Assembly: GCF_964204865.1 (NCBI RefSeq) | Contig: NC_135255.1 | Span: 3,782,001-3,846,000 of the forward strand | Direction: 5' to 3' | From: Styela clava | Lineage: Eukaryota > Chordata > Ascidiacea > Stolidobranchia > Styelidae | Length of the DNA stretch: 64,000 bases | In this document: in pieces, positions 11,483 to 61,100 of the stretch | Layout of the letters: every line of letters starts with the position of its first letter | How positions within the stretch are numbered: the first letter of the stretch is position 1 | Made by a program: the position numbers and the translations under genes | The notes under the pieces: model-generated | The model's database searches: none | What the model saw: only the letters and a program-made list of their open reading frames with translations | Told to the model about the DNA's origin: nothing

Positions 11483-14400
11483 CTATAATATTGTACAGCA
11501 TTTAGATTGGAGTTGCGTAACCTGGCCCCGGATGTCTGTAATATCTTGGCGCATACGATCACTTTCGCTCTTAAATGTTTGCGTCAAGTTTGCATCTCGA
11601 TCTGTCATTGTATCATCTATTGTCTTTTTTAGTGTTTCCTCGCATTCTTGAATTTTTTTCATATTTGAATGATCAAGTGTGTCTATTTTATCCATAAGTC
11701 GATTTTCTAAACTGTTTGTTCGCTCTTGTGTAGTTCGAACTATGTCATCGCATTGTTGTTGAGAGTCTTCCAAGCCGTGCCTGAATATATGAATCAACTT
11801 GTTAAGCCATTAAATCTAAAATCGAATAAGCAATGTTCATATCTACCCCATGTTACTGGTTATTCACTTCCTTCCACCGATACTTTGCTCTATATTGCTA
11901 AGCCGTGGCAATGCTTTAAAAGTTACATTGACCGCAATGAGATCTTACGCGAAAACATTTCACAAAGTTTTGTTCTTAACGTCAATTTTAGATTTATAGG
12001 CGTTTTCGCATTTACTGTCAAATAAGGATAGATACAATGGGATGCAAAAATACCACCATGTGTCGATGGACACCAAATACTGTACATGATTGAATGAACT
12101 TTCAAATAAATAAAGTCTTTGATCTCATGTCAAATCTTTTCTGTTTACATTTGAAATACCTAAAGCAGTGTTTATCAAACTGTGTGCCGCGGCACACTAG
12201 TGTGCCGTGAGAGATTCTCAGGTGTGCCGCAGAGCTTTTTGGAATTTTAGAAAATAAGCTTCTCATATTACACATAGGCATGCATGCAACGGGAAAAACT
12301 TGAGTGCGCATTATCCATTATTAGACTGATAACATCATTGCATTTGACTTGTCGTTGTAGTAAGGGTAATTGTCACGCTATAATTGTATTGTTATGTTAT
12401 AACGTATATTCAAACAAGACGTCCATGTTTAACCATGTTGACTTGCGCGCCTAGTTGGGCTAACAGGAAAGCAAGTTTGTACGAGTTTTGACTGTGCTAA
12501 ATTCATCGAAGTAATCTGGCCATTTGCATCTCCATATGGCTCTGTGAAAACGGTTTTTTTGCTCTGACTGAAATTAAAAGCAAAAAAGGGATCGATGGAA
12601 CCTCGTTTCAATTGTTTCTCAAAACAGGCACACACATCGAATCAACATTTGCAGAATAAAATTTGTTTAAAGCTAACTTTATTTTTTACAAGTGTGCCGC
12701 AAATTGTTTTTCATTTGCTCAGTGCGCCGCGAGCAAAAAAAGTTTGAGAACCACTGACCTAAAGTCTTGTCGGATATTTTCTTCGGCAGTTCGTACTCTC
12801 GTATCAGCTTCTCGTCGAAAATTTTCCTCCCACCGATGCTTCTCTTTGTCAATCCTCTGATCGACATCTTGTAGAATCTCACGTTGAACCTGCAAAATTG
12901 ACATATGTCCCAGGAAATGCTTAAACTCCACAAAATTTCCACTGCATATTCTACAATCAAAGTGATGACATTATTTTATTGTTTTGTTTATAAACTTTTT
13001 AATCAAACCAACGATTATTTTTTTAGATGAATTGTTTGCACGACAGTGTTAACTTTAATTAATTCCAGTCTGGAACATCAGCGCTATCTACAGACATCTT
13101 TGTTAAAATGACGACGACGATTGGCGCAATGTCGATCAATATATCATATAGCCAGTGGTGGGATTCAGTCGGTTCGCACCGGTTATATAGAACCGTCTCA
13201 CGGAATTTTAGAGATCAGCGAACCGGTTAGCATTACTGGTTACTGTCAATGACTTTATGTAACAGAACCAGGTGAAAAATATGACTTTTGTGATGAAACC
13301 GCTGACAAACCGATCCAACCACTGCATATAGCACGCTTCAACAGTAACGAGTCTCGTCAATGTAATTTTTTTAGTATAACGTTAAATTGAATATATATAT
13401 GAAATTGAGCAGATACGAGTTATTTATTCAGCATTTTGTTCGAAGATTGGTTGATTACTACAAAGATTCCCTGTGCCAATATATCCATTCCATATATCCA
13501 TTTTTTCAAAGTTCATTATAAATTTATTATTATTTTTAAATTGTTACAATCAGAACCGACTGCGATATATACACTAAATATACGGGACGCTGAAGCAAAT
13601 ATCATGTATCTCATTACTTTCCCCGCTCATGGTTATTTGTATACGGACAGCAAAAACAGCAGGCGCATAAATATTTCATTACATCTAACGAAGGTAACCC
13701 AAGTTTGCTGAACAATATTATATAATTCATTGCGGCATTAATTCATATTAAATTTATCTTAACTGCGATGTACATACGTTTTCGATACATTGAACCTGCG
13801 ATGCTTTAAAGCATTGAATATTTAATGAATTAATTGGCCGTTTCTCGATTGTCGATGAAGTAAATTTACCCGATTGATCTTAATACGGAACACAAAATAG
13901 TATCGGGCGTTGCCATAGACGCAGTGTTGTTTTCAGTCTTACGCCCACCGCAAAAACAAAGCGTCACCGCGGATCACGAAATGTACGGATGAATCGAAAT
14001 GAAAGAGTTGAAGAGCATCTAACATGATAAACGTTGTGGCATCATCTGTCCACAAATGTCATTGGTGAAAGTAATGATCGGTTGGAGTAATTTTGATCGT
14101 TAAATCGTGAAGCAAAAGCACTTGTCTTGGATTAACCTATAACTAACAACATTTTATCTTGATAAATGTAGGAGGCAAATGCGATTTATATATGGCACAT
14201 GCGACATAATATTTTTAAGTAAGAATGACTTATTTATGCGATTATGCGTAATCTAGCACCAAAATGTCGCTCCCGGCTAAAACTAGTATTTTCAAGTTGA
14301 ATAGAATTCGCGATTGATGTGTCATATTTCACAGTATATAAAAGCACGAAAACTAAATATATCTATCAAAACCATTAATCGCTTGAAAAATTTATGGTTT

Positions 14401-17400
14401 GTGATGCAATTCTTCAATTGATGAGCTCTTTTCAAATTTGTTTACGATATATTAGAATAACATAACAGTTGAATTGTCTTAAAAATAACCTTTTTTAGAG
14501 TTATATTCTTACCCTGCCCAGTTCCGATTTAAGAATTTTGTTGAAACTATCTTCAAATTCTTTTTGAACTTTTGCTACTCGGTTTTCAAAAGGTTCTCCG
14601 TTTGTCAAACGTTTTTCTAATTCTCGTGTGAGATTATCTTCCGTTTTTTCGAGGTCCACTTTTAATTCTCCTGAAAAATGAGTTTTTGTACGGTAGTTTG
14701 TAAAAATCAGTAATCTCTAGATCAAGCCGAAACACTACGTTATTTAGATGTTAATTGGAAAGCCCTCGCAAATAAGTAATGTTCTTTAAACAATTCTAAT
14801 ACATTATTTTACTTTCTTGTTGGGCATTGGTAGATTTTGTCTACTTTGATTGTAGTGGTATAGGGGATTGGTCGAACTATGTTTGGTTTTGTATGTCAAA
14901 TTGGTTATCTCGGGTACTATCCAATTATGACGGTGGACTTTGTTGATGTCACAAATATATTCTCGGGTTCAAGCCTTCATACCTGTGGAATAAATAGGGG
15001 ATGCAATGCAGACCCGGACATATTGGTGACCGGGCTTATCAAATCTAATTGATCGAAAATTTCAAAATAAATAAAAAAATATTCCAATTCTGATTTCAGA
15101 ATATAAATTATCTTCAACGCTATCTCGTACTTGTAATTGACTTTAAGTCGTGTTTAAATGGACGGCAGCCTTCATAAAATGGATCAATTTTGTGTGTTGT
15201 GAGTCGATAAATCAATATTATTTACAGCTCATTACACAGCGCAAAGTTGTTTCCTGGAGTAGTCTCATAAGTACTCGTCTGATGGTTAAATCCCTTAAAA
15301 TTAGGCGATTTTCCCTATAATTGCATGTACCACTCATCTAATTAGGTTAAGGATTATTTCTATCAGCTAAATGTATATTATATTTCGACCATAGATATTG
15401 CCATTACGCCACTGTAATATTGATCGCAAAATTTGGCTAACTTGAGGGAATAAAAACTATAAATCTCGGCACTCCAGAAATGTGTGTACCAATAAAGAGG
15501 TAATTAATTTTGATCTGATCTCAAGATAAAATAGCGTTTTTACTATTCTTATTAAAGTAATAAATTATCATGTTTGAAACTGATGTCAGCCTGTGATATA
15601 TTTGAAAAACGGTTTCAGATATTTTATCAAGTATAAGTATCGGAATAACGATCGGGATCGATATAGATTTTAGCGATATCGAGTTTGTATCAATGAAAAA
15701 TAAGTTACCGGTATATACGACAAAAAGATTGGAAAATCTATTTGTCGGTATTGAAAATAATATGTACAGCAAGAGCTAAAGTAAAAATAGTAGTAAAAAT
15801 GCTTTTTGCACTTCGCAAATTGCGTTTTTATCCTGCTCTTTCACAGAGCGCTCGTGTATCGATTTAAATTTCCTTTCTATTTTATTAGCGTCGTTTGATA
15901 ACTTAATTTCACGCTAATCTTACTACGTTTATCAAATAAAATATTCAAAGTAGTCCTCTGCGTTTAATTTAGCCGTTCCATGGCCGAGCAGTCCGATTTT
16001 AGAGATGGAAATCTTCGAGCGCCTTTGAGGCGCTTGCCCGTGACTTCCACACAAGTTAATGTACAAGCTAGCAACGTGACAAATTAGCAAGCATAAATTA
16101 AAAGCAAAAGTTAGTTTTTATGAGTGTGATTACATAGTTTTTTATGAGTTACTGCTTTGACCCAACTATGTTAAAATCAAAATGAATAGATTTCAAGAAC
16201 AAATCGCAATGCAATATATCGGGTTCGGTGGTGAGTTGGCTTGAATGTAACAAAAGATACAATTTATTATAAAAAAAACTAAACAGAACGTATATACTAA
16301 CCTTTTATTGAATGTCTTTCCTGATTTATTCTATCTTGAAGAACCAATAAGATGTCTTTTCTAGTATCGACTAATATGTTATCGAGTACCGCACGAATTT
16401 GCAATTTCAATTCTTCTTGTCTTCTCTGGGCAATCAGTGCTCTTTCTTCTTCATGTTGCTTCACTCTGGAACATATAAAAATTGAAACTTTTTTATTAAA
16501 GAGCAGACTCAATTTTTTTCGTAGAACCCGAAAAAAAATGCTTATAATCTCAAAACACCTGACCCAAATTCTTTGAGGTAGGCCACAAATTTTGAATAAT
16601 TCCATACATTGAAAAGCGATATACCTATTTGACAGAGCAATTTGTTCTACATTATATTTTTGCTAAACATTTTTTTTTACTTATTTTAAACTCAAGTCCA
16701 AACCCCAAAGGCCAGTCGACTGAGTGTAGAATGTTGTAAACGTATAAAATAAGCGATGGAAGCTTGCAATAACATGATCAAAATATTATTTCTAGTTTTA
16801 TAAGCCTTGAATTTCAATATAACCCTCCAGTTTTTCAGTTTGGGATACTCAATATTTGCAACTGAGAAATGCGCTCATTTATCATTCAAGTGTGGTCCTG
16901 TATCCTGATCAAATAATATCGACGAACTAACAAATAAGTAGGTGTTGATGGATCGGGTTATGCATGCGCGGGATGGATCAAAAGCTTCGGCTTGTTTCTA
17001 ATCAGAAACTATTATCTGAATTTGAAACAAATGCAACGTAAAATCATTTCTATCGTTTCAATCATGGCTTCAAACCCTCATCGAAGCATTTACCATCGAA
17101 TAATCTTCATAGAAAAGAGAGGGGGCGAAACATTCTGCACTAGATTAAATGTAATTGTGACCGATGGTGACTTTCTATTAACTTTCGACAGTAAAGTACA
17201 CAACAGAGTTAGGGAAAAATGGAGATTAATGCGCTATTAAATTTTTAAAACTAACTGAAGCATTGCCAAGTAAACAATACAAAAAGTTCTTATCGAGGTA
17301 TTTTATGCATGAAAATATTTTGAGCTTTAACGCATTAGAAACAAAAAAACTCACTGGCCAGAAAATCTAAATCGCAGGACTGCTGGGGTAGAATTTGAGA

Positions 17401-18456
17401 TTAAAATAGACAAACATGGGTTATACTCGAAGCATTACTTCAAATCATTAATTATTTACAATGGAGCTCACACAAGTAATTAATTAGATTATTTCAAATT
17501 TTGAACCTACTCAGCTATTCGTAATTTCAGATTTGGGCCAGCTTTTAGCTTTTCTGTTCTGGTTTTGTTCGGGTTTGGTATTCAATAAATAAACCCGCTT
17601 ATTTTTTACTGTTCTTACATTCGCTATGATTAATTTCCCATGTATATAATTTGTACATATTTAATACATACATAAATATATAATAAAAATCACCATGCTA
17701 CATTACATTTATCAATTGTACGACCGATTAAAATGAAACTATTTTAAACTTTTTTGCTTAAATTCTGTCCAAATAGGAGATTTTATTTTTACAATAATGC
17801 AACATACATGATCTTGTTTGATATAACATATTAATTGATATTGCATTTGATATCCATGCATTTACTAGGTTATATCAACTAATTACTTTAGCAAATTAGT
17901 ATTTATATTCGTAATATTATTTTTTAGTTTTAGTACAATTTCCAATAATTTGCATTCATAATAGGTTACGCTTACATCAAAGAAACCCAAACAAGAAAAT
18001 AAATTAGTTTTAACGTAACTCATTCATTTGTATTGATCGACCACCCTTAACACATAATTATAATATTTAACGGGTTTGCAGAAAATAATTGTTTGTAGCA
18101 GAAATTATTTTAGTCCTTTGCTTAGGTTTTCCATACCTTGTTTCTCGTACTTTTCTTCGTTGTTCTTCAGCTGCCTTTTTCATCGTTGAAAACCTATTTG
18201 GTGATTTGGATTCTTCAATCAAATCTCCAGATAATTGTGCACTCAGGCCATTTACTGGAGTTTCACCCCTGGATCTTCGGGCCGGGGTACCCTCTGGAGC
18301 TCCTCTTCCGGTGCGAGACCTCGCCGAATTTTGAGAACCGAATCCATCCATATTTGTTGAAGGTTCTTTGTGATCCTTGACTGTTCCTTCAGACGGAGGG
18401 AACTTCATAAGTAACTTATTGTGTTTTTGCAATTTTTTGGCATTCAGAACAAGCAC
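11483..18456 (-). CDS. Coiled-coil protein with C-terminal CaaX box (5 exons)
   Basis: Exons in transcript order: 18456-18137, 16465-16302, 14670-14513, 12889-12759, 11780-11483 (stop 11485-11483). All four junctions have GT-AG borders and matching phases (2,1,0,2). The first ATG at 18456 gives 356 residues; ATG at 18351 (MDGFGSQNSARSRTGRG) has the best context (A at -3, G at +4) and gives 321. The N-terminus is a Ser/Arg/Gly-rich disordered head. The remainder is almost continuous charged coiled coil (EEERALIAQRRQEELKLQ; KEKHRWEENFRREADTRVR). The last residues are SKCCTIL, whose final four, CTIL, form a CaaX motif of the geranylgeranyl type; the extra Cys could be acylated. A minus-strand AATAAA lies at 11256-11251. 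Head-plus-rod layout and size recall SF-assemblin/giardin-like proteins, but this is only a resemblance. Function unknown; a membrane-attached rod is inferred. Confidence 0.72.
12166..12756. mobile_element. Non-autonomous hAT-type element, 591 bp, abutting a splice donor
   Basis: The left end reads cagtgtttatcaaactgtg, followed by gtgccgcggcacactagtgt. The right end is agtttgagaaccactg. These are imperfect terminal inverted repeats of a common hAT-type family. Perfect 8-bp duplications ACCTAAAG flank it (12158-12165, 12757-12764). No transposase frame is intact. It lies in the last intron of the minus-strand coiled-coil gene, its right end two bases from the exon border at 12759. Confidence 0.85.
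13153..13324. mobile_element. Non-autonomous hAT-type element, 172 bp
   Basis: The ends are cagtggtgggattcagtcgg and accgatccaaccactg. The flanking duplication CATATAGC is perfect (13145-13152, 13325-13332). It is too short to encode a protein and sits in the third intron of the minus-strand coiled-coil gene. Confidence 0.85.
16466..18136 (-). other. First intron of the coiled-coil gene
   Basis: The donor is CAAG|GTATGG at 18137/18136 and the acceptor is before 16465. The interior is AT-rich. An 82-codon plus-strand frame at 16992-17240 has no domain or splice support. Nothing else recognised. Confidence 0.5.
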
Positions 18457-49100: not shown

Positions 49101-52100
49101 AAATGTTTTTTCTTTGAATATTCTATTTTTAATCCCTACTATCTTCAGTAGTTACTGGTATATCATCATTTTGACATCTAACTAATTAAAAATGTACTTC
49201 AGAACAATGTCATTTTGAGACTCAGATATAATCGATAGAAATTGAATATTTTTATGCACCTATGATACTAAGTACAGTTTCATCGAAAAAAAAATTCTTA
49301 GAAAATCCCTTATATTAATGCTTACTATTTTTTGCAGTTGAATTATCTCTACTTTTATTTAATTCAATTTCTAGTTTCTAACCAAGTTTCCACTTCTGTA
49401 TTCAGACCAAGATGTGTACTCAACCGTCCAAAACTTAATTTGGTCTTCCTTGTGTCGACTGCAAGAGGAGTGTCCAATAGCGATTACAATCATGTCAAAA
49501 GTTTTATTTCCAACATAGTGAGGGAAATTGCTTTCGGAACGCAGTCCGTTCTTGTTTCAGTAATTGAGTTTAATACAGAAGGATATATTCAAATTGGTTT
49601 GACCCAGTATTTGTCTAAAACTCAACTATTGAAAGCTATTGGTGATATGAGCAAAAAGGCAGCTGGAAAGAATAATGTTGTCAAAGGTATGTAAATAAGT
49701 TGGATTTTATATATTAGTTCGATCATCATGCTGATGCTTTGAAATTCTTTTTTTTTTATATATAAAAAATAAACTATTTTGATCACCTCATTATCAATTG
49801 TAAATCAACACTATTCAGTATTGTTTTTGTATGGATATATTGTAATACTGATTTATCATATTTCACAAAGCGCAACACGGATGAAATCTCTCACATAAAA
49901 ATATGTCTGATATGATACATCGTCAATTTCCCATTTTCGTATAATGTAATTTCTGGTTTCTGCCCGAAAATTTAGGAACACTAAAATATTTGGTGTTAGA
50001 GTTATACGGTTCTACTTGCTATTTTGCTTTGATTACATTCTTAAAAAAGGGCAAAGTTGTTTCTTTCAGGTTGCCTCTTATTCTAAATATGTAGAATTTT
50101 GTATCAAGTTATGATATTTTTTTAGGATTTGCACAATATATACGTGAGATACAGTCTGCAGGAAGAAATGACGCAGAGAAGATGATTTTCCTCATTACTA
50201 AAGATAATGCAGATGATGGACCTAGAGCTATTTCAACGTAAGATCATCCAAAACTTGAATTGGAAATGTATTTATAATGTATGTATTGGAAATGTCAAAC
50301 AAAATAAGCTCCATGACTACCAACTTACTCTGGGTGTAATGACTATAGTGAGCTATGCTAGCAATGGAATTCAAATTTTTTCAAACATTGTAACATGGTC
50401 GCCTGTATGTGAACTTTTATCGGCCAGACAGAATGAAAAACTATAAAAATAGGTCACTTTTTGTGCCTATAACCTTTCAGTTATTTTAACATTCATATAT
50501 TTGCATTACAGACGTGTTAAAAATGATGGCACTGTTATCACTGCTATTGCTGTTGGAAGCGAACCTGATGATAAGATACTAAATATGTTAGCCTCGAGGA
50601 ATGATCGAAGAGTGCGATTGCCAAATTATCGAGCCTTCAGAGATAGAACTTTTGTTAACAGTGTTGTTAAGGATATTGAATGTCGTCCTAAAGGTATGCA
50701 TTACTAACAGAGGCATTTTTAAACATAGTGTTAGCGACTTATACAAAGATGTTTCTTCTTTTGTTCAGGAATTGACATAATAGTAGCCTGTGGAGCCTTT
50801 ACTCATTATCAGAGAAAAATGCGGCACTAAATCATATTTGAGCAATTTATTGATAATTAGAACATGCATGATAAATGAATCCACGAATTTGAAATAGAAT
50901 AACAATGATACATCTATTGTTACTTTAAGGAGGTGGCTTGGGAGAACCTAGTGTCAGAACAACCACAGAAAGCATTGTTACAAGTCCTACTTTACCAAGC
51001 ACTGTACGAGAAAAATCTCCATCAAGTAAGTATAAATGCCAGATAAAGCCTGTTATACTGTATTTGTTTAGAACTCCTAACATATCGGTCAAGTACAAGT
51101 TGCTGGAAAACTATGGCTATAACTCCTACTTTGGGAATTATGTGAGGACTATACACTTTTCCTATTTTCTATCAAGGTGGAAAAGCATAATAAAATAAGG
51201 TGTTCTCATATTTCATAAAAAAATATCCCAATAAATTAGAGTATGAAACGACTTCTGTTGTAGTTGCTAATTAAACTAGTTAGATATTAATCTGACTCCA
51301 AACAGAATATATAATAGGTTACTTGTTCAAGTTGAGACGTCTGTTAATTTAATATAACAGCAAGGATCTAGACAATTGCCTGTATAGATTTTATTTCCTT
51401 CGATAAAGTTATTATTCATAACAGTAGCGATCATCAGATTTATTAACGATATTTATTAACGTTTGACGATAATGATGACGATCTCTTGTATGTTATGTTG
51501 AAATATTATATTGGAATCTTCTAGAACAGGGCTACTCAACTATTTTTACCGAAGATCCGCATACAAAACTTTAAAAATATTTGGGTCCGGTCTTTCCAGA
51601 AATTATATTTCGGCACCCTTAAACACGCATTTCCTCGGCCGACTAATGATTATTAACTAATCAAGATTGTTTAATATGGTGTAATAGTTGTTTTAATATA
51701 TATTTAAATCTATAAAAGTGATTTTATAAAAGGAAACTTTAAAAGTGCGGCTATTAATCCAAAATAAAGAATTAGGCGCGGTCCGAATCATATACCCGAA
51801 AGGTCCAGATTCGGACCGCGGTCTGCAAGTTGAGTAGCCCTGTTCTAGAATATTCTCCAATATTTATGACTTAAGAATTATTTTTAGTCTTGATGTCATT
51901 ATTTCCAAAATTATTGGTTAATTTGTTACAAGTAAAACAGTATTAATCTGGGTGAAATATAGGGTCCCGTAAGACTCAGAAAAACGTTAGAAATAAATAA
52001 AAAGAATAGTAACACAATCCACCACATCTCCAAGTACTGAAAATTTGAAATCGATTGATCCATTACTTGTGGAGAAAAATTATTTTGCCCAATAACAATG

Positions 52101-55100: not shown

Positions 55101-58100
55101 AGCAGGTTCAAAAGCATAATTTTATTGTAAAAGACCTTTCAATGCATATTATCTAGTTTGGTCATTTTTAGGTTTACTTGAGAGAATTCTGATCTCTTTA
55201 CTAAACGTAGTCTTTTCTTTGAAGCAATAACAAATTTTTTTCAAACTTTAGGAAGACACTTTCCAAACCAACACAATTTTAACACCTGGTGAAGTATACA
55301 CTTTGCTCGTAACTCCTATCACAGCTGAAGGACCATTAACAGAAATGGATTCACAATTCACAACTCGTTAGTTTTTATCATAAACTTATTTACTTCTAAT
55401 ATTAGTCAGATTATTTATATATTTAGTGAAAATTCATCTGTGTCCTGATAAGGGAATTTGAATTGCTGCAATTGTTATGTTGGCATCTTAGGTCACAGAT
55501 CTTGTGTTGAAGTTCGGGGGACCTTTCGCTCAAATCAAGCCTACCCTTTTCTGCAAAGTGTTGTAAACTGAAGGCTATTTTGAATTGAAAAGATTTCATT
55601 CCTCCAATCGAGTACTGTTCCTTATGCTTTAAGCAGATTTTTGCACAGAGCCTTGTTCAAAACGAATAAGCATTCAAGTAAAAAAGTACTTAAAGAAAAC
55701 ACAATTTGTCATCTTCAAAGAATAAATTTACAATTTTGTTAATCTGTTTTATATTCAGCAACGTTGACAAGACCTTATAACGTACGAGCAACAAATATTA
55801 CCATGGATTCCTTCAATATTGCGTGGGATCCTGACAATTATGCAAATGTAAGTTACACTAAGAATATCATTCTAATAAAAACTTTCAATATGTTTATTGA
55901 AGAGTAGAATGTGTTATAACTTATAGGACTATATACAAAAAAAGTCAGAAAAATTCCGAATACAGTGTGTTCATTTCAAACTGGCCTTACCGAATCTTTT
56001 TTGTGACCATTGAAAAGGTATCCTACTTATAATACTGTTTTGCAAGAATTGAACCAACACCAAAAATGATTATTGGATAATACTAAAGCAAGCTAAGCAA
56101 ATGTTATTGACAAAAGTAATTTTGCTTTACTGCTAATAAATCATGAATTGAGTATTTTCAAAATATTATGTTTACATTCTGACATCATAATCTGTCATTG
56201 GCTTTTGTTTACCTTCAATACATCTTTTATCTTTTTATCAATATATGAAAAATTTTAGGTTTATTCCGTTAAAGTCATTTATCTTGGTTATGGTGATGAC
56301 AGAGGAGAAGTTGTTGTTTACGAAAGCACTGGTTTGAATAATCCTGACATTGATGTCAAGGGACTTCCATCCGGTGGAAAGTTTAGAATTGAAGTTGCCA
56401 ACAGAGCGAATGGTGCAACATCGAGAACAACATCTATTGAGGAAACTATATGTATGACAATATATGATCATTTCATCTAAACACTTTTCAACATGGCTTA
56501 TCAGAACTATTGTTATTTTAGATCCAGCACCTTTAGCCAGTTTAGAGCAACTAGGAAGAAATTTGGACAATGTTCGGATGACATTTATTCCTGGACCTGG
56601 TGATGCAGATCAATTTATATTCACAATTGCCGAAGAAAATAATCCTACTGTTGTGTTAAAAACTGTTACGGTAAACGTTTAAGGTTTATTACAATAGGTA
56701 ATAAGATATAGGCAGTTTTTAAAATAACTCATAGATGTAGATGGTTGTAATTATTTTAGACATTATGCTAATACAAGTTTAAAATAAGATACATTTTTTT
56801 AATATTTCAACATTTCAATATAGGTACCGTTGACAGATGACAGGGATATAAACAACATTGTTTCATTTACTAACTTATCCCCTAATGAAAAATTCATCGT
56901 CACTGGATATGCACAACGTGGAGATCTTAGAAGTTCAGAAACTACTAGTCCAGCTCAAACAGGTGCGAATAGAATATTCAGGATTCATTTTGAGATGTAT
57001 GTTAATGTGTTGTTCGTTTATAATTCATTGTTATTGGGTACAAAGTCTTCTCAATGATTACTCTAAAACATTGTTATTGATGTCTGTATTCATGTTGTTG
57101 TTGCTGACACAAAATATCTTTTTGCTCTCTGACTGATTGACCAGTCGCTTTTTACTGTTTATTAGAAGAAGGACAAATTTTTACAGTTATTTATTTTGTT
57201 CTGTATGTATTGGACCTAACACAATATGTATGTTTTCAGTAAAACAATAAGCATTCATTTTTATAGAGTTGAGCATTGATCACTTTTTATTTTTTGTTCA
57301 AATTTCAATCATTTCATCAATATACAGAATCAGCTGGTGCTCCAACAAATCTTCGGGTAGAGGACAAAACCACATCATCATTTGTCATTAAATGGGATAG
57401 AGATGACAGCGCTGATGTGAGTACATTTTATTCTTTATTACTACATTTGTTGAAGGTCTTTATTGTTGTTGGAATTTGGATGAAATTATACAACATAAGT
57501 TAAAATAGTAAAATCAGGCTAAAAGGAACTTTTATCCTATATTATTGATTTAGTAAGTTTTTCTTTATAATGATGTAACTGGTAAGCTTGGCAACATTTT
57601 TCAGTCATATTACCTGCAAGTCTTCCGTCTTGGTGAGGAAGGGCAATTCAGAATATATGGCAACAATGGTCTGACAGAACCACAACAAACACTGGATAGA
57701 CTAACACCTGGAAGAACATATAGGATACAGCTTGCTAGTGTTCGCAGAGGAGTAACTTCAGATACAACAACTATTGAGGAAACTGTCGGTGAGATTAAAT
57801 ACTTTCATTTCGACATGACCTTTGATCTATGAGACGAAAATACTGGAGTGGGCGCAATGTCATAAAGATTTGGTATAAAAATATTAGCCAAACAATATTA
57901 TCTCCAGCATTTCAATGGTATCGACGTTTTGTGGCACTTTCATGGAAATCGAAATATTGGCTCAGTATATATACGGTATATTAAATTGTCTAGCACAGTG
58001 GTTCTCGAACTTTTTAAGCCGCGTCCCGATTTTTAGAATTTGACAAGTCTCCTGCCCCACCTCAAGAATAACTAGCTAACAATAAGCTACAAATAACAGA

Positions 58101-61100
58101 TAGTAAGGCGAAAACATGTTTTATTCGAAAAGCACATTGAAAATATGTGGATGGATCGTAAATATCCAAAATAAGGTGGTTCACCTCTCACCGTTTGACA
58201 ACCACTGGTCTAGCAGGTATTGCCCCTTTATAGACATAACACAATGTTGATATCCACTGACTTTAGATAGATATTTATAGAAAGAGAAGAAATGCTAACT
58301 GTCATAACACTGGTAAAATAACATGAATCGACTTGCTTTTGTCTGCAGTTGATACAAGATATATTAAAGTTGAAAATCATTATATACTGGATATAATTTT
58401 TTCTTAATTTAAAAACAAGTACAAATTAAAACATCTCATATTTTCAGATCTCATACCACCTCAAAACTTAAGACTTCAAGAAGTTGGAGAGGATTATATC
58501 ATTGTCAGATTCGACATTGCACCTAGTTATTTTGACGGTATTACCTTTCAACTTGCATCTAAAGTATTTCCGGATTCTATTATTGACGGCACAACGGTAT
58601 GTATATGTTACTCTGAATGAAGCATGAGCCGAAACATCGTTATTTTATTGCATCAAGTTTTAAATAGGAATTTTAATGGAAAAACTAAGCGTTTTGTTCA
58701 TATCATAATTTTGAATCAAAATTTTTGTACAACTACCGTAATACTCCAAGCGTATTCCATACGTGATGACAAATGCTATAGAATGGATTGGGTTCTTTTT
58801 ACTTTAGGCTCGTTTGATGTCTTCAAATATTTATTTTTATTCCCTGTATTTGAACAAACTGCAAATTCGTATTTTTAGAATACTTTTACTCTTTTTTTTG
58901 TCATAGAATTAAAGTTCACATACTTTGTGTCAGTATCTTTGTTTTATATATTTCGTTTTTTCCATTTTATTCTTTTTGTTTTTTGTTTTTTCATGTTGTT
59001 TCAATTTAATTCCGTTGACAGGTAAAAGTAGTTGATGGGAAATACAATCCTTTGGTTAGATTTTCTAATCTTGAACCAGGAACAGAATACCTCATTACCG
59101 GATTTTCTTATGTTGAAGGATATGAAAGTGAACCAGTAACATTGGAGGTCCAGACTGGTATGTCATTTTTCAAAATAATATAAGTTAATAATGATGACTC
59201 TGCATTTGTATACAATATGATTTACTCAAATAACTCAAGTAACTGATATATTTTCTGATATATTTTTTACACTCGTGCATTTCTTGTTAATAAGCAATTT
59301 AAATGGATGTTATCAATTTTAGAACAACCTCCACCACGCCCAACTAACGTTCGAGTGGATGATTTGGCAACAACTTCATTTACTGTTAGATGGGATGAAC
59401 ACGAAGATGTTGATGTGAGTATTGAATTCATCTTGTATTCATTTTTAATTCTATAATTGAACTTCTCACAATAATCTGGCTTAGTTATAATCCATTAAAT
59501 CTGCTAACACTACAAAACTGTTTCATTTATTTGATTTCAACAAGGCCCTGTAAAAACTCTTAAGTATAGTTGTTCATTCTCACATTATTTTTATGAAAGT
59601 ATTCAATCTCAGCAACATTGTTTTATTATTTCAGCTGTACTCATGTGAAGTATTCTTTGAGCCACAGCCTGGTGTAATAGGCACTCGGGGTAGAGTATAT
59701 CGCAATACTGCACTTGAATCACCAGAAGTTATTTTGACTGAACTTACTCCCGGAGCTCGGTATACGATTGTAGTTGCTAACATTGTAGGACGAAGAACAT
59801 CTGAAACTGTTGAACTATCAGAAAGAACATGTGAATGTTTTATATTTTATTTATACGACAGGCATTGTTCTATTTATATTATTTTTATTTGGTATTCAGT
59901 ACAAGATATGGTTACAGGCAAAGTAGACTACATGGTAGCAGTTCTTTTTCAAAATTCACTAACAAATGTTTTGAAACGCACACAATAAAATTAACAGTTC
60001 ACTTTCAAAGATTTCCCACTAGGTACACATTTTTTGGCTTAATACAATTAGATACAAGGTAGTCACTGTCTTTCTCATATCAAGTGATCATATATTGCCG
60101 GATTATTTTGAAAAGGTTACTCTCTTACTAGCTTTATAGACAGTAAGATACTTAATGCTGTGATTAGAAATGCTATCTTTCATTTCATGTGTGGGAGATT
60201 TCATTATATCTAAAATTATTTCAGCATGATCATCATATCTTAAAATTTATTTTGTGAAAGATAGGTTCAATCATAATTTGAGAGCAAAATAATTGAATTG
60301 GGTTTGTTCTAAACTTTTTTAATTAGTATAGTTTAATTTGAGCGAATTTGAATACCTGATTTCAATTCAGCTTCATTCTCTTTCAAACATTTGCTTAGCT
60401 TTTATAGTCCTCCAATTATTTTACCACTCTTTTTAACTTTCAATTTGTTCTTTTTTAAGATCCTTTGCAGCTGAAAAGTTTCGAACAAACTGGTGAAGGT
60501 TTTGATTTCGTCAGATTACAATTTCTACCTGGAGAAGGAGTTGTTGATGATTTCACATTCACTATTGCACGAGCTGATAACATAGAAACAATATTAGAAT
60601 CTACAAGGGTAAACTAAAGACTATATGATTGATTTCTTTTTGTTGGCTCCACTATTATATTCTACAGTCTCTAACTTTGCATTATTTTTAGGTTGACATT
60701 ATAAATGGAAGAGTGAACAATGTTGTTACATTTAATGATTTATCTCCTAATACGCAATATGTTGTATCTGGATATTCAACAAGTGGAAATAAGAATAGCG
60801 CAGTAACCAATATCATGGCCAAAACAAGTACATTTTATTTATTCAAGTTGGTTTATAGTTGATGTTATTCTGGATTCTGGGAGGATAACACAAGTCTATA
60901 AATATATCTTTTTTGTTGATCGAATTATACTACTTTGTATTGCATGCCCTATATTCTTTAGATACCGTTATTATGTAGTACATGTGCAAGAGTGATATGT
61001 CACAGATGCCTGTTGCATGTAATTGGGTAGTATATGTTAAATACTAAATTATAGTATCTTCTTATCATTTTTATAAAATATTTTCCATTACTACAGGAGG

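What the first reader, a model, noticed from the sequence alone, without database searches (positions are those of the whole stretch)
12157..12765. A hAT-type insertion rebuilt a 5' splice site
On the minus strand, exon 4 of the coiled-coil gene ends GACTTTAG at 12759. The duplication ACCTAAAG spans this border. The present donor is TTTAG|GTCAGT: its GT comes from the target duplication and the next bases, CAGT, are the transposon terminus. The other duplication copy, 590 bases further into the intron, still carries the old donor TTTAG|GTATTT, now detached from its exon. So the element landed on a splice donor, duplicated it, and its own conserved CAGTG end now supplies intron positions +3 to +6. 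Because hAT ends of this family begin CAGTG, insertion after GT would make a GTCAGT donor in general, a possible recurrent route. Seen in sequence: duplication, ends, phases. Inferred: the ancestral donor and present use.
Basis: partly seen in the sequence, partly recalled or inferred. Interest (0 to 1): 0.78.

Follow-up and report, generated by a model that had tools for sequence, protein, structure and literature searches.

The report
Young transposon sits on splice donor
A small "jumping" DNA element landed exactly on the end of an exon, duplicated the splice signal there, and probably supplies part of the replacement signal; it looks like a neat one-off result of a common kind of insertion and has not been checked in RNA.

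Summary
The sequence observation holds. A 591-bp element (12166-12756) with imperfect inverted ends (14 of 16) is flanked by an exact 8-bp duplication on the exon 4 border of a minus-strand coiled-coil gene. The duplication copies are 599 bases apart, not 590. The present donor is TAG|GTCAGT; the detached copy reads TAG|GTATTT. A splice at 12759 keeps the frame open to the stop; the distal donor or retention meets a stop 13 codons on. The element is a hAT-type MITE: 12 of 13 readable family duplications, this one included, fit the Buster pattern nnnTAnnn. It looks young (5 private changes in 533 sites), so it may be polymorphic.

The "recurrent route" is only half supported. The donor-like junction occurs at 107 places. 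AGGT targets are not preferred (7 of 1244 exact ends). Of 88 nonredundant junctions read, only the window's could be tied to an exon end, by tests that could miss others. Use of the donor was not observed: no RNA, empty allele or related species was available. One bold alternative remains open: the duplicated AG|GT makes a recursive-splicing point.

The parts
12759..12889 (-). exon 4 of the coiled-coil gene (131 nt, starts phase 0, ends phase 2)
   Evidence: open frame, flanked by TTTTGCAG and GTCAGT
12757..12764 (-). proximal target-site duplication CTTTAG|GT, spanning the exon|intron border
12753..12758 (-). present 5' splice site GTCAGT: GT from the duplication, CAGT from the element end
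   Evidence: for letters; use inferred from frame
12166..12756 (-). 591-bp nonautonomous hAT-type element (MITE), inverted ends CAGTGGTTCTCAAACT / CAGTGTTTATCAAACT
12158..12165 (-). distal target-site duplication CTTTAG|GT
12154..12159 (-). detached, presumed ancestral donor GTATTT; with the CTTTAG before it, a potential zero-length-exon (recursive splicing) point
   Evidence: ancestral role inferred
11483..11780 (-). exon 5 with stop codon (acceptor ATATTCAG before 11780)
   Evidence: positions read
14513..14670 (-). exon 3, donor AGG|GTAAGA
   Evidence: read; acceptor
16302..16465 (-). an upstream exon, donor AAAAG|GTTAGT
   Evidence: read; acceptor
18137..18410 (-). approximate first coding exon seen, donor ACAAG|GTATGG; its 5' end was not determined
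   Evidence: read

Best explanation
A nonautonomous hAT element with Buster-type target preference (TA-centred 8-bp target) inserted into the site CTTTAG^GT at the end of exon 4 and duplicated it. The exon-side copy keeps the exon end and intron bases +1 and +2; the element's own end CAGTG now gives +3 to +6, making TAG|GTCAGT. Shown: insertion, duplication, letters, phases. Inferred: the spliceosome uses this donor in one step to the old exon 5 acceptor, so the mRNA is unchanged and the intron grew by 599 bp. The insertion looks recent and may be polymorphic. The target was probably hit by chance and tolerated because the junction still makes a donor.
For: Exact 8-bp duplication and matching ends. 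The element belongs to a repeat family: 50 matching stretches from the 40 scored of 391 candidates, two relatives at 95%. 12 of 13 readable family duplications, window copy included, have TA at positions 4-5, the Buster consensus given in PMC3517528 (passages). Splicing at 12759 gives an open frame to the stop; the distal donor or retention stops 13 codons into the element. Among candidates from exon 4 to just past the distal copy, the new donor scores highest with a recalled human-like matrix: 2.95, against 0.52 for the old donor and 0.17 for the only other phase-2 candidate inside exon 4. The window copy has 5 private changes in 533 gap-free sites against five relatives.
Against: No RNA was seen. 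C at +3 is unusual (recalled). The three other donors of the gene score higher in the same matrix (4.41-4.83). Predicted RNA folds pair much of the new donor, both in a 200-nt early transcript and in the whole element, where the two inverted ends pair; no other donor was folded as a control. The protein matches no Pfam family above cut-off and no solved structure, so the exon border rests on frame and splice motifs alone.
Confidence: 0.78

Rival explanations
1. The insertion damaged splicing: much RNA uses the distal or a cryptic donor (for example TCG|GTGGGA at 12834, which keeps the frame but drops 25 codons) or retains the element, so this is a partly broken, probably polymorphic allele.
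For: C at +3; predicted pairing of the new donor with the opposite element end; few private changes, so little time for selection.
Against: The cryptic and distal donors score lower (0.17 and 0.52 against 2.95), and the distal product is truncated.
Confidence: 0.12
2. Two-step (recursive) splicing: because the duplication contains AG|GT, the distal copy CTTTAG|GTATTT is a joined 3' and 5' splice site. GTCAGT...CTTTAG (599 nt) is removed first, restoring the old donor, then the old intron is removed. The mRNA is the same.
For: Geometry read from the sequence. The distal AG scores -1.29 in a crude recalled acceptor matrix, close to the exon 5 acceptor at -0.77.
Against: That score is no better than 23% of all AGs in the window, and there is no strong pyrimidine tract. 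One-step splicing needs nothing extra.
Confidence: 0.07
3. The exon border is misassigned and the element lies in an ordinary intron or untranslated stretch.
For: No homologue, paralogue or transcript supports the gene model.
Against: Exons 3, 4 and 5 join in matching phases with canonical GT and AG, and skipping exon 4 (131 nt) would shift the frame (and by eye).
Confidence: 0.03

Closest known systems
Introners derived from DNA transposons (PMC9860276; passages seen)
   Same: Splice sites recruited partly from the target duplication and partly from the element ends; 8-bp duplications are among the examples.
   Different: Introners create a new intron in an exon, in many copies. Here an existing intron's donor is replaced, and one case was found.
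Maize Ds1, a hAT element spliced as an intron (titles for Adh1-Fm335 and for 'De novo synthesis of an intron by Dissociation' seen only in the reference list of PMC3260210; the papers are not held)
   Same: A hAT element in a transcribed gene removed by splicing; use of sequence in the element end or duplication is recalled, not read.
   Different: Ds1 is Ac-type and exonic; here the element has Buster-type duplications and sits on an existing donor.
Mar, a Buster-group hAT MITE of Drosophila (PMC3517528; passages seen)
   Same: Nonautonomous hAT with 8-bp duplication nnnTAnnn.
   Different: Different host and sequence; no splice-donor replacement appears in the passages seen.
Stwintrons (PMC12403724; start of abstract in listing only)
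   Same: An internal intron interrupts the donor of an external intron.
   Different: Stwintrons split the donor between bases 1 and 2; here the 599-nt GT-AG unit would sit exactly between exon and donor, and one-step splicing is as good.

Membership tests
hAT superfamily MITE | 8-bp target-site duplication | tested here: met
   Exact ACCTAAAG on both sides; 13 of 30 family loci gave a readable 8-bp duplication, 7 exact and 6 with one mismatch.
hAT superfamily MITE | short terminal inverted repeats of CANNG type | tested here: met
   CAGTG ends, 14 of 16 positions; the CA/TG requirement was built into the TSD search.
hAT superfamily MITE | dispersed repeat family without coding capacity | tested here: met
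   50 matching stretches in the genome; the element is 591 bp, too short for a hAT transposase (recalled size).
hAT, Buster group | target consensus nnnTAnnn | tested here: met
   12 of 13 duplications; the exception is CCTAAGAA.
hAT, Buster group | mobilising transposase in the Buster clade with the same ends | not tested
   The PF05699 search did not complete.
Introner / transposon-derived intron | element spliced out so that the mRNA is unchanged | not testable with these tools
   No RNA; the frame is consistent.
Introner / transposon-derived intron | many copies creating introns at new positions | tested here: inconclusive
   88 nonredundant TAG|GTCAGnG junctions read; only the window's was tied to an exon end, but short exons without Pfam domains would be missed.

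The most novel reading that the evidence does not exclude
A TA-targeting hAT element that lands on TAG|GT automatically duplicates a complete AG|GT. It therefore turns an ordinary intron into a compound one with a ready-made recursive-splicing point (CTTTAG|GTATTT) while its end supplies a working outer donor. Such insertions at donors would be buffered against harm by their own duplication.
Probability: 0.08. Interest if true: 0.62.

Novelty: new variant of a known kind. Interest (0 to 1): 0.36.

Why it matters
If the donor is used, this is a clean, recent example of how an 8-bp target duplication plus a transposon end can replace a splice donor without changing the mRNA. That would bear on why some splice-site insertions are tolerated. 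The general version predicts that hAT ends beginning CAGTG next to a duplicated TAG|GT make a donor. The raw junction is common in this genome (107 places), so the prediction is testable with RNA from the same species.

Tried and rejected
Preference for splice donors as targets: rejected as unsupported. 7 of 1244 exact ends (CAGTGKTTCTCAAACT) follow AGGT. Base composition alone predicts about 3-4, and TA-centred targeting about 10-11.

Other exon-end cases. One search counted 107 TAGGT junctions and listed 100. I read 94: 93 of the listed places, plus L046, which was already held. I did not fetch 7 listed places, as presumed local duplicates. I dropped 6 as redundant, leaving 88. Longest open frame upstream: median 20 codons against 21 for 98 TAGGT sites of the window; 40 or more in 18 of 88 against 19 of 98. 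Four other sites have longer frames than the window copy. Of the 17 other sites with 40 or more codons, 16 were scanned with Pfam (L108 was not), and none reached a cut-off. This filter is weak: the window's own gene has no Pfam match either.

L074 (C2:20855454) first looked like a second case. It lies after a PP2A subunit A exon, but that exon has its own donor CAG|GTAAGT 33 nt upstream, so it is an ordinary intronic insertion.

L083 carries TAG|GTAAGTGG (one base differs from the usual end); no exon was recognised there, and its peptide was not scanned with Pfam.

Empty allele or paralogue: none. The exon 4 region matches only itself, and the exon 4-5 protein matches only itself.

Viral contigs: one scan with a 26-base stretch of the element, 0 matches. 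Rfam and tRNA scans of the window: none. One search was a self-comparison and told nothing.

Paper searches that bear on novelty. Their listings showed no title on a hAT insertion replacing a donor; most papers were not opened, and subscription papers are not held. [quoted passage not shown]

Full report
What is there. The window lies at C6:3782001-3846000 of an unnamed 376.6-Mb genome; the species was not identified. On the minus strand, a gene with coiled-coil-like protein sequence has exon 4 at 12889..12759 and exon 5 from 11780. Between them lies a 591-bp element, 12166-12756, with ends CAGTGGTTCTCAAACT and CAGTGTTTATCAAACT (14 of 16 alike) and an exact 8-bp duplication, CTTTAGGT on the gene strand. 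The duplication covers six exon bases and intron bases +1 and +2. The present donor is therefore TAG|GTCAGT and the detached copy TAG|GTATTT, 599 bases further in.

Is it a real transposon? Yes. The genome search gave 50 matching stretches (40 of 391 candidates were scored); two relatives are 95% identical. Of the 30 loci fetched, 13, including the window copy, gave a readable 8-bp duplication (7 exact, 6 with one mismatch), and 12 of these 13 have TA at positions 4-5. PMC3517528 gives nnnTAnnn as the Buster-group consensus (passages). The exact 16-base end CAGTGKTTCTCAAACT occurs 1244 times in the genome, against 2 for the reversed control. Three more hAT-like insertions with exact 8-bp duplications lie in the window.

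Age. Aligned with five relatives, the window copy has 5 private substitutions in 533 gap-free columns. The insertion is probably recent and could be polymorphic; no second allele is visible in the assembly.

Is the new donor used? Not observed, but likely. Splicing at 12759 joins phase 2 to phase 2 and the frame stays open to the stop in exon 5; the distal donor or retention stops 13 codons past the border. Exon 4 has 131 nt, so skipping it would shift the frame. With a human-like matrix recalled from memory, the new donor scores 2.95, the old 0.52, and the only other phase-2 candidate in exon 4 scores 0.17. The gene's other three donors score 4.41-4.83. Against use: C at +3 is unusual (recalled), and RNA folding pairs much of the donor, in the full transcript with the opposite end of the element (the 651-nt fold has z = -2.31 on 20 shuffles; no control donors were folded). 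The protein matches no Pfam family above cut-off and no solved structure, so no homologue confirms the border.

Is it a recurrent route? The junction is recurrent, the outcome is not shown. TAG|GTCAGnG plus a related end occurs at 107 places, control 0. This follows from the TA-centred target: an AGGT-ending duplication nearly always reads TAGGT. But AGGT is not preferred: 7 of 1244 exact ends, against about 3-4 expected from base composition and 10-11 given a TA. Upstream of 88 nonredundant junctions read, open frames are like those upstream of 98 TAGGT sites in the window (median 20 against 21 codons; 40 or more in 18 of 88 against 19 of 98). Pfam found no family above cut-off in 16 of the 17 other long frames, though it would have missed the window's own gene. 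One copy (L074) lies 33 nt inside an intron, after a PP2A subunit A exon with its own donor. The single window case is what chance and survival could produce.

A bolder reading. Because the duplication holds AG|GT, the distal copy is a joined acceptor and donor. GTCAGT...CTTTAG could be removed first, restoring the old donor. The distal AG scores -1.29 in a crude recalled acceptor matrix, close to exon 5's -0.77, but 23% of all AGs in the window score as well. Both routes give the same mRNA, so only nascent RNA could tell them apart.

Known relatives. Transposon-derived introns that take splice sites from the target duplication and from element ends are established (PMC9860276, passages), and hAT Ds1 acting as an intron in maize is in print (titles seen in the reference list of PMC3260210). 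What differs here is that an existing donor is replaced. I found no such hAT case in nine paper searches of an open-licence library, judged mostly from listings, so absence from print is not established.

Noticed in passing
window 13153-13324: A second hAT-like element (duplication CATATAGC, ends CAGTGGTG.../CAGTGGTT...) lies in intron 3, so exon 4 is flanked by two such elements.
   Followed up: no
window 51527-51842: Element with perfect 14-bp inverted ends CAGGGCTACTCAAC and duplication TTCTAGAA.
   Followed up: no
window 57996-58207: Another short hAT-like element, duplication GTCTAGCA, ends like the main element's.
   Followed up: no
window about 25500-50000, + strand (part of a possibly larger gene): Exons with EGF, sushi, fibronectin III and von Willebrand A domains (Pfam, six exon pieces).
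   Followed up: partly
G000 C13:13877092-13937308: The end pattern CAGTGTTTCCCAAACT repeats about every 5015 bases (13 listed places), suggesting a tandem array.
   Followed up: no
L083 (G000 C4:19112911): A hAT-like copy whose junction reads TAG|GTAAGTGG, a consensus donor made by one base change in the element end.
   Followed up: partly
L074 (G000 C2:20855454-20855913): A related element inserted 33 nt after the donor of a PP2A subunit A exon.
   Followed up: yes
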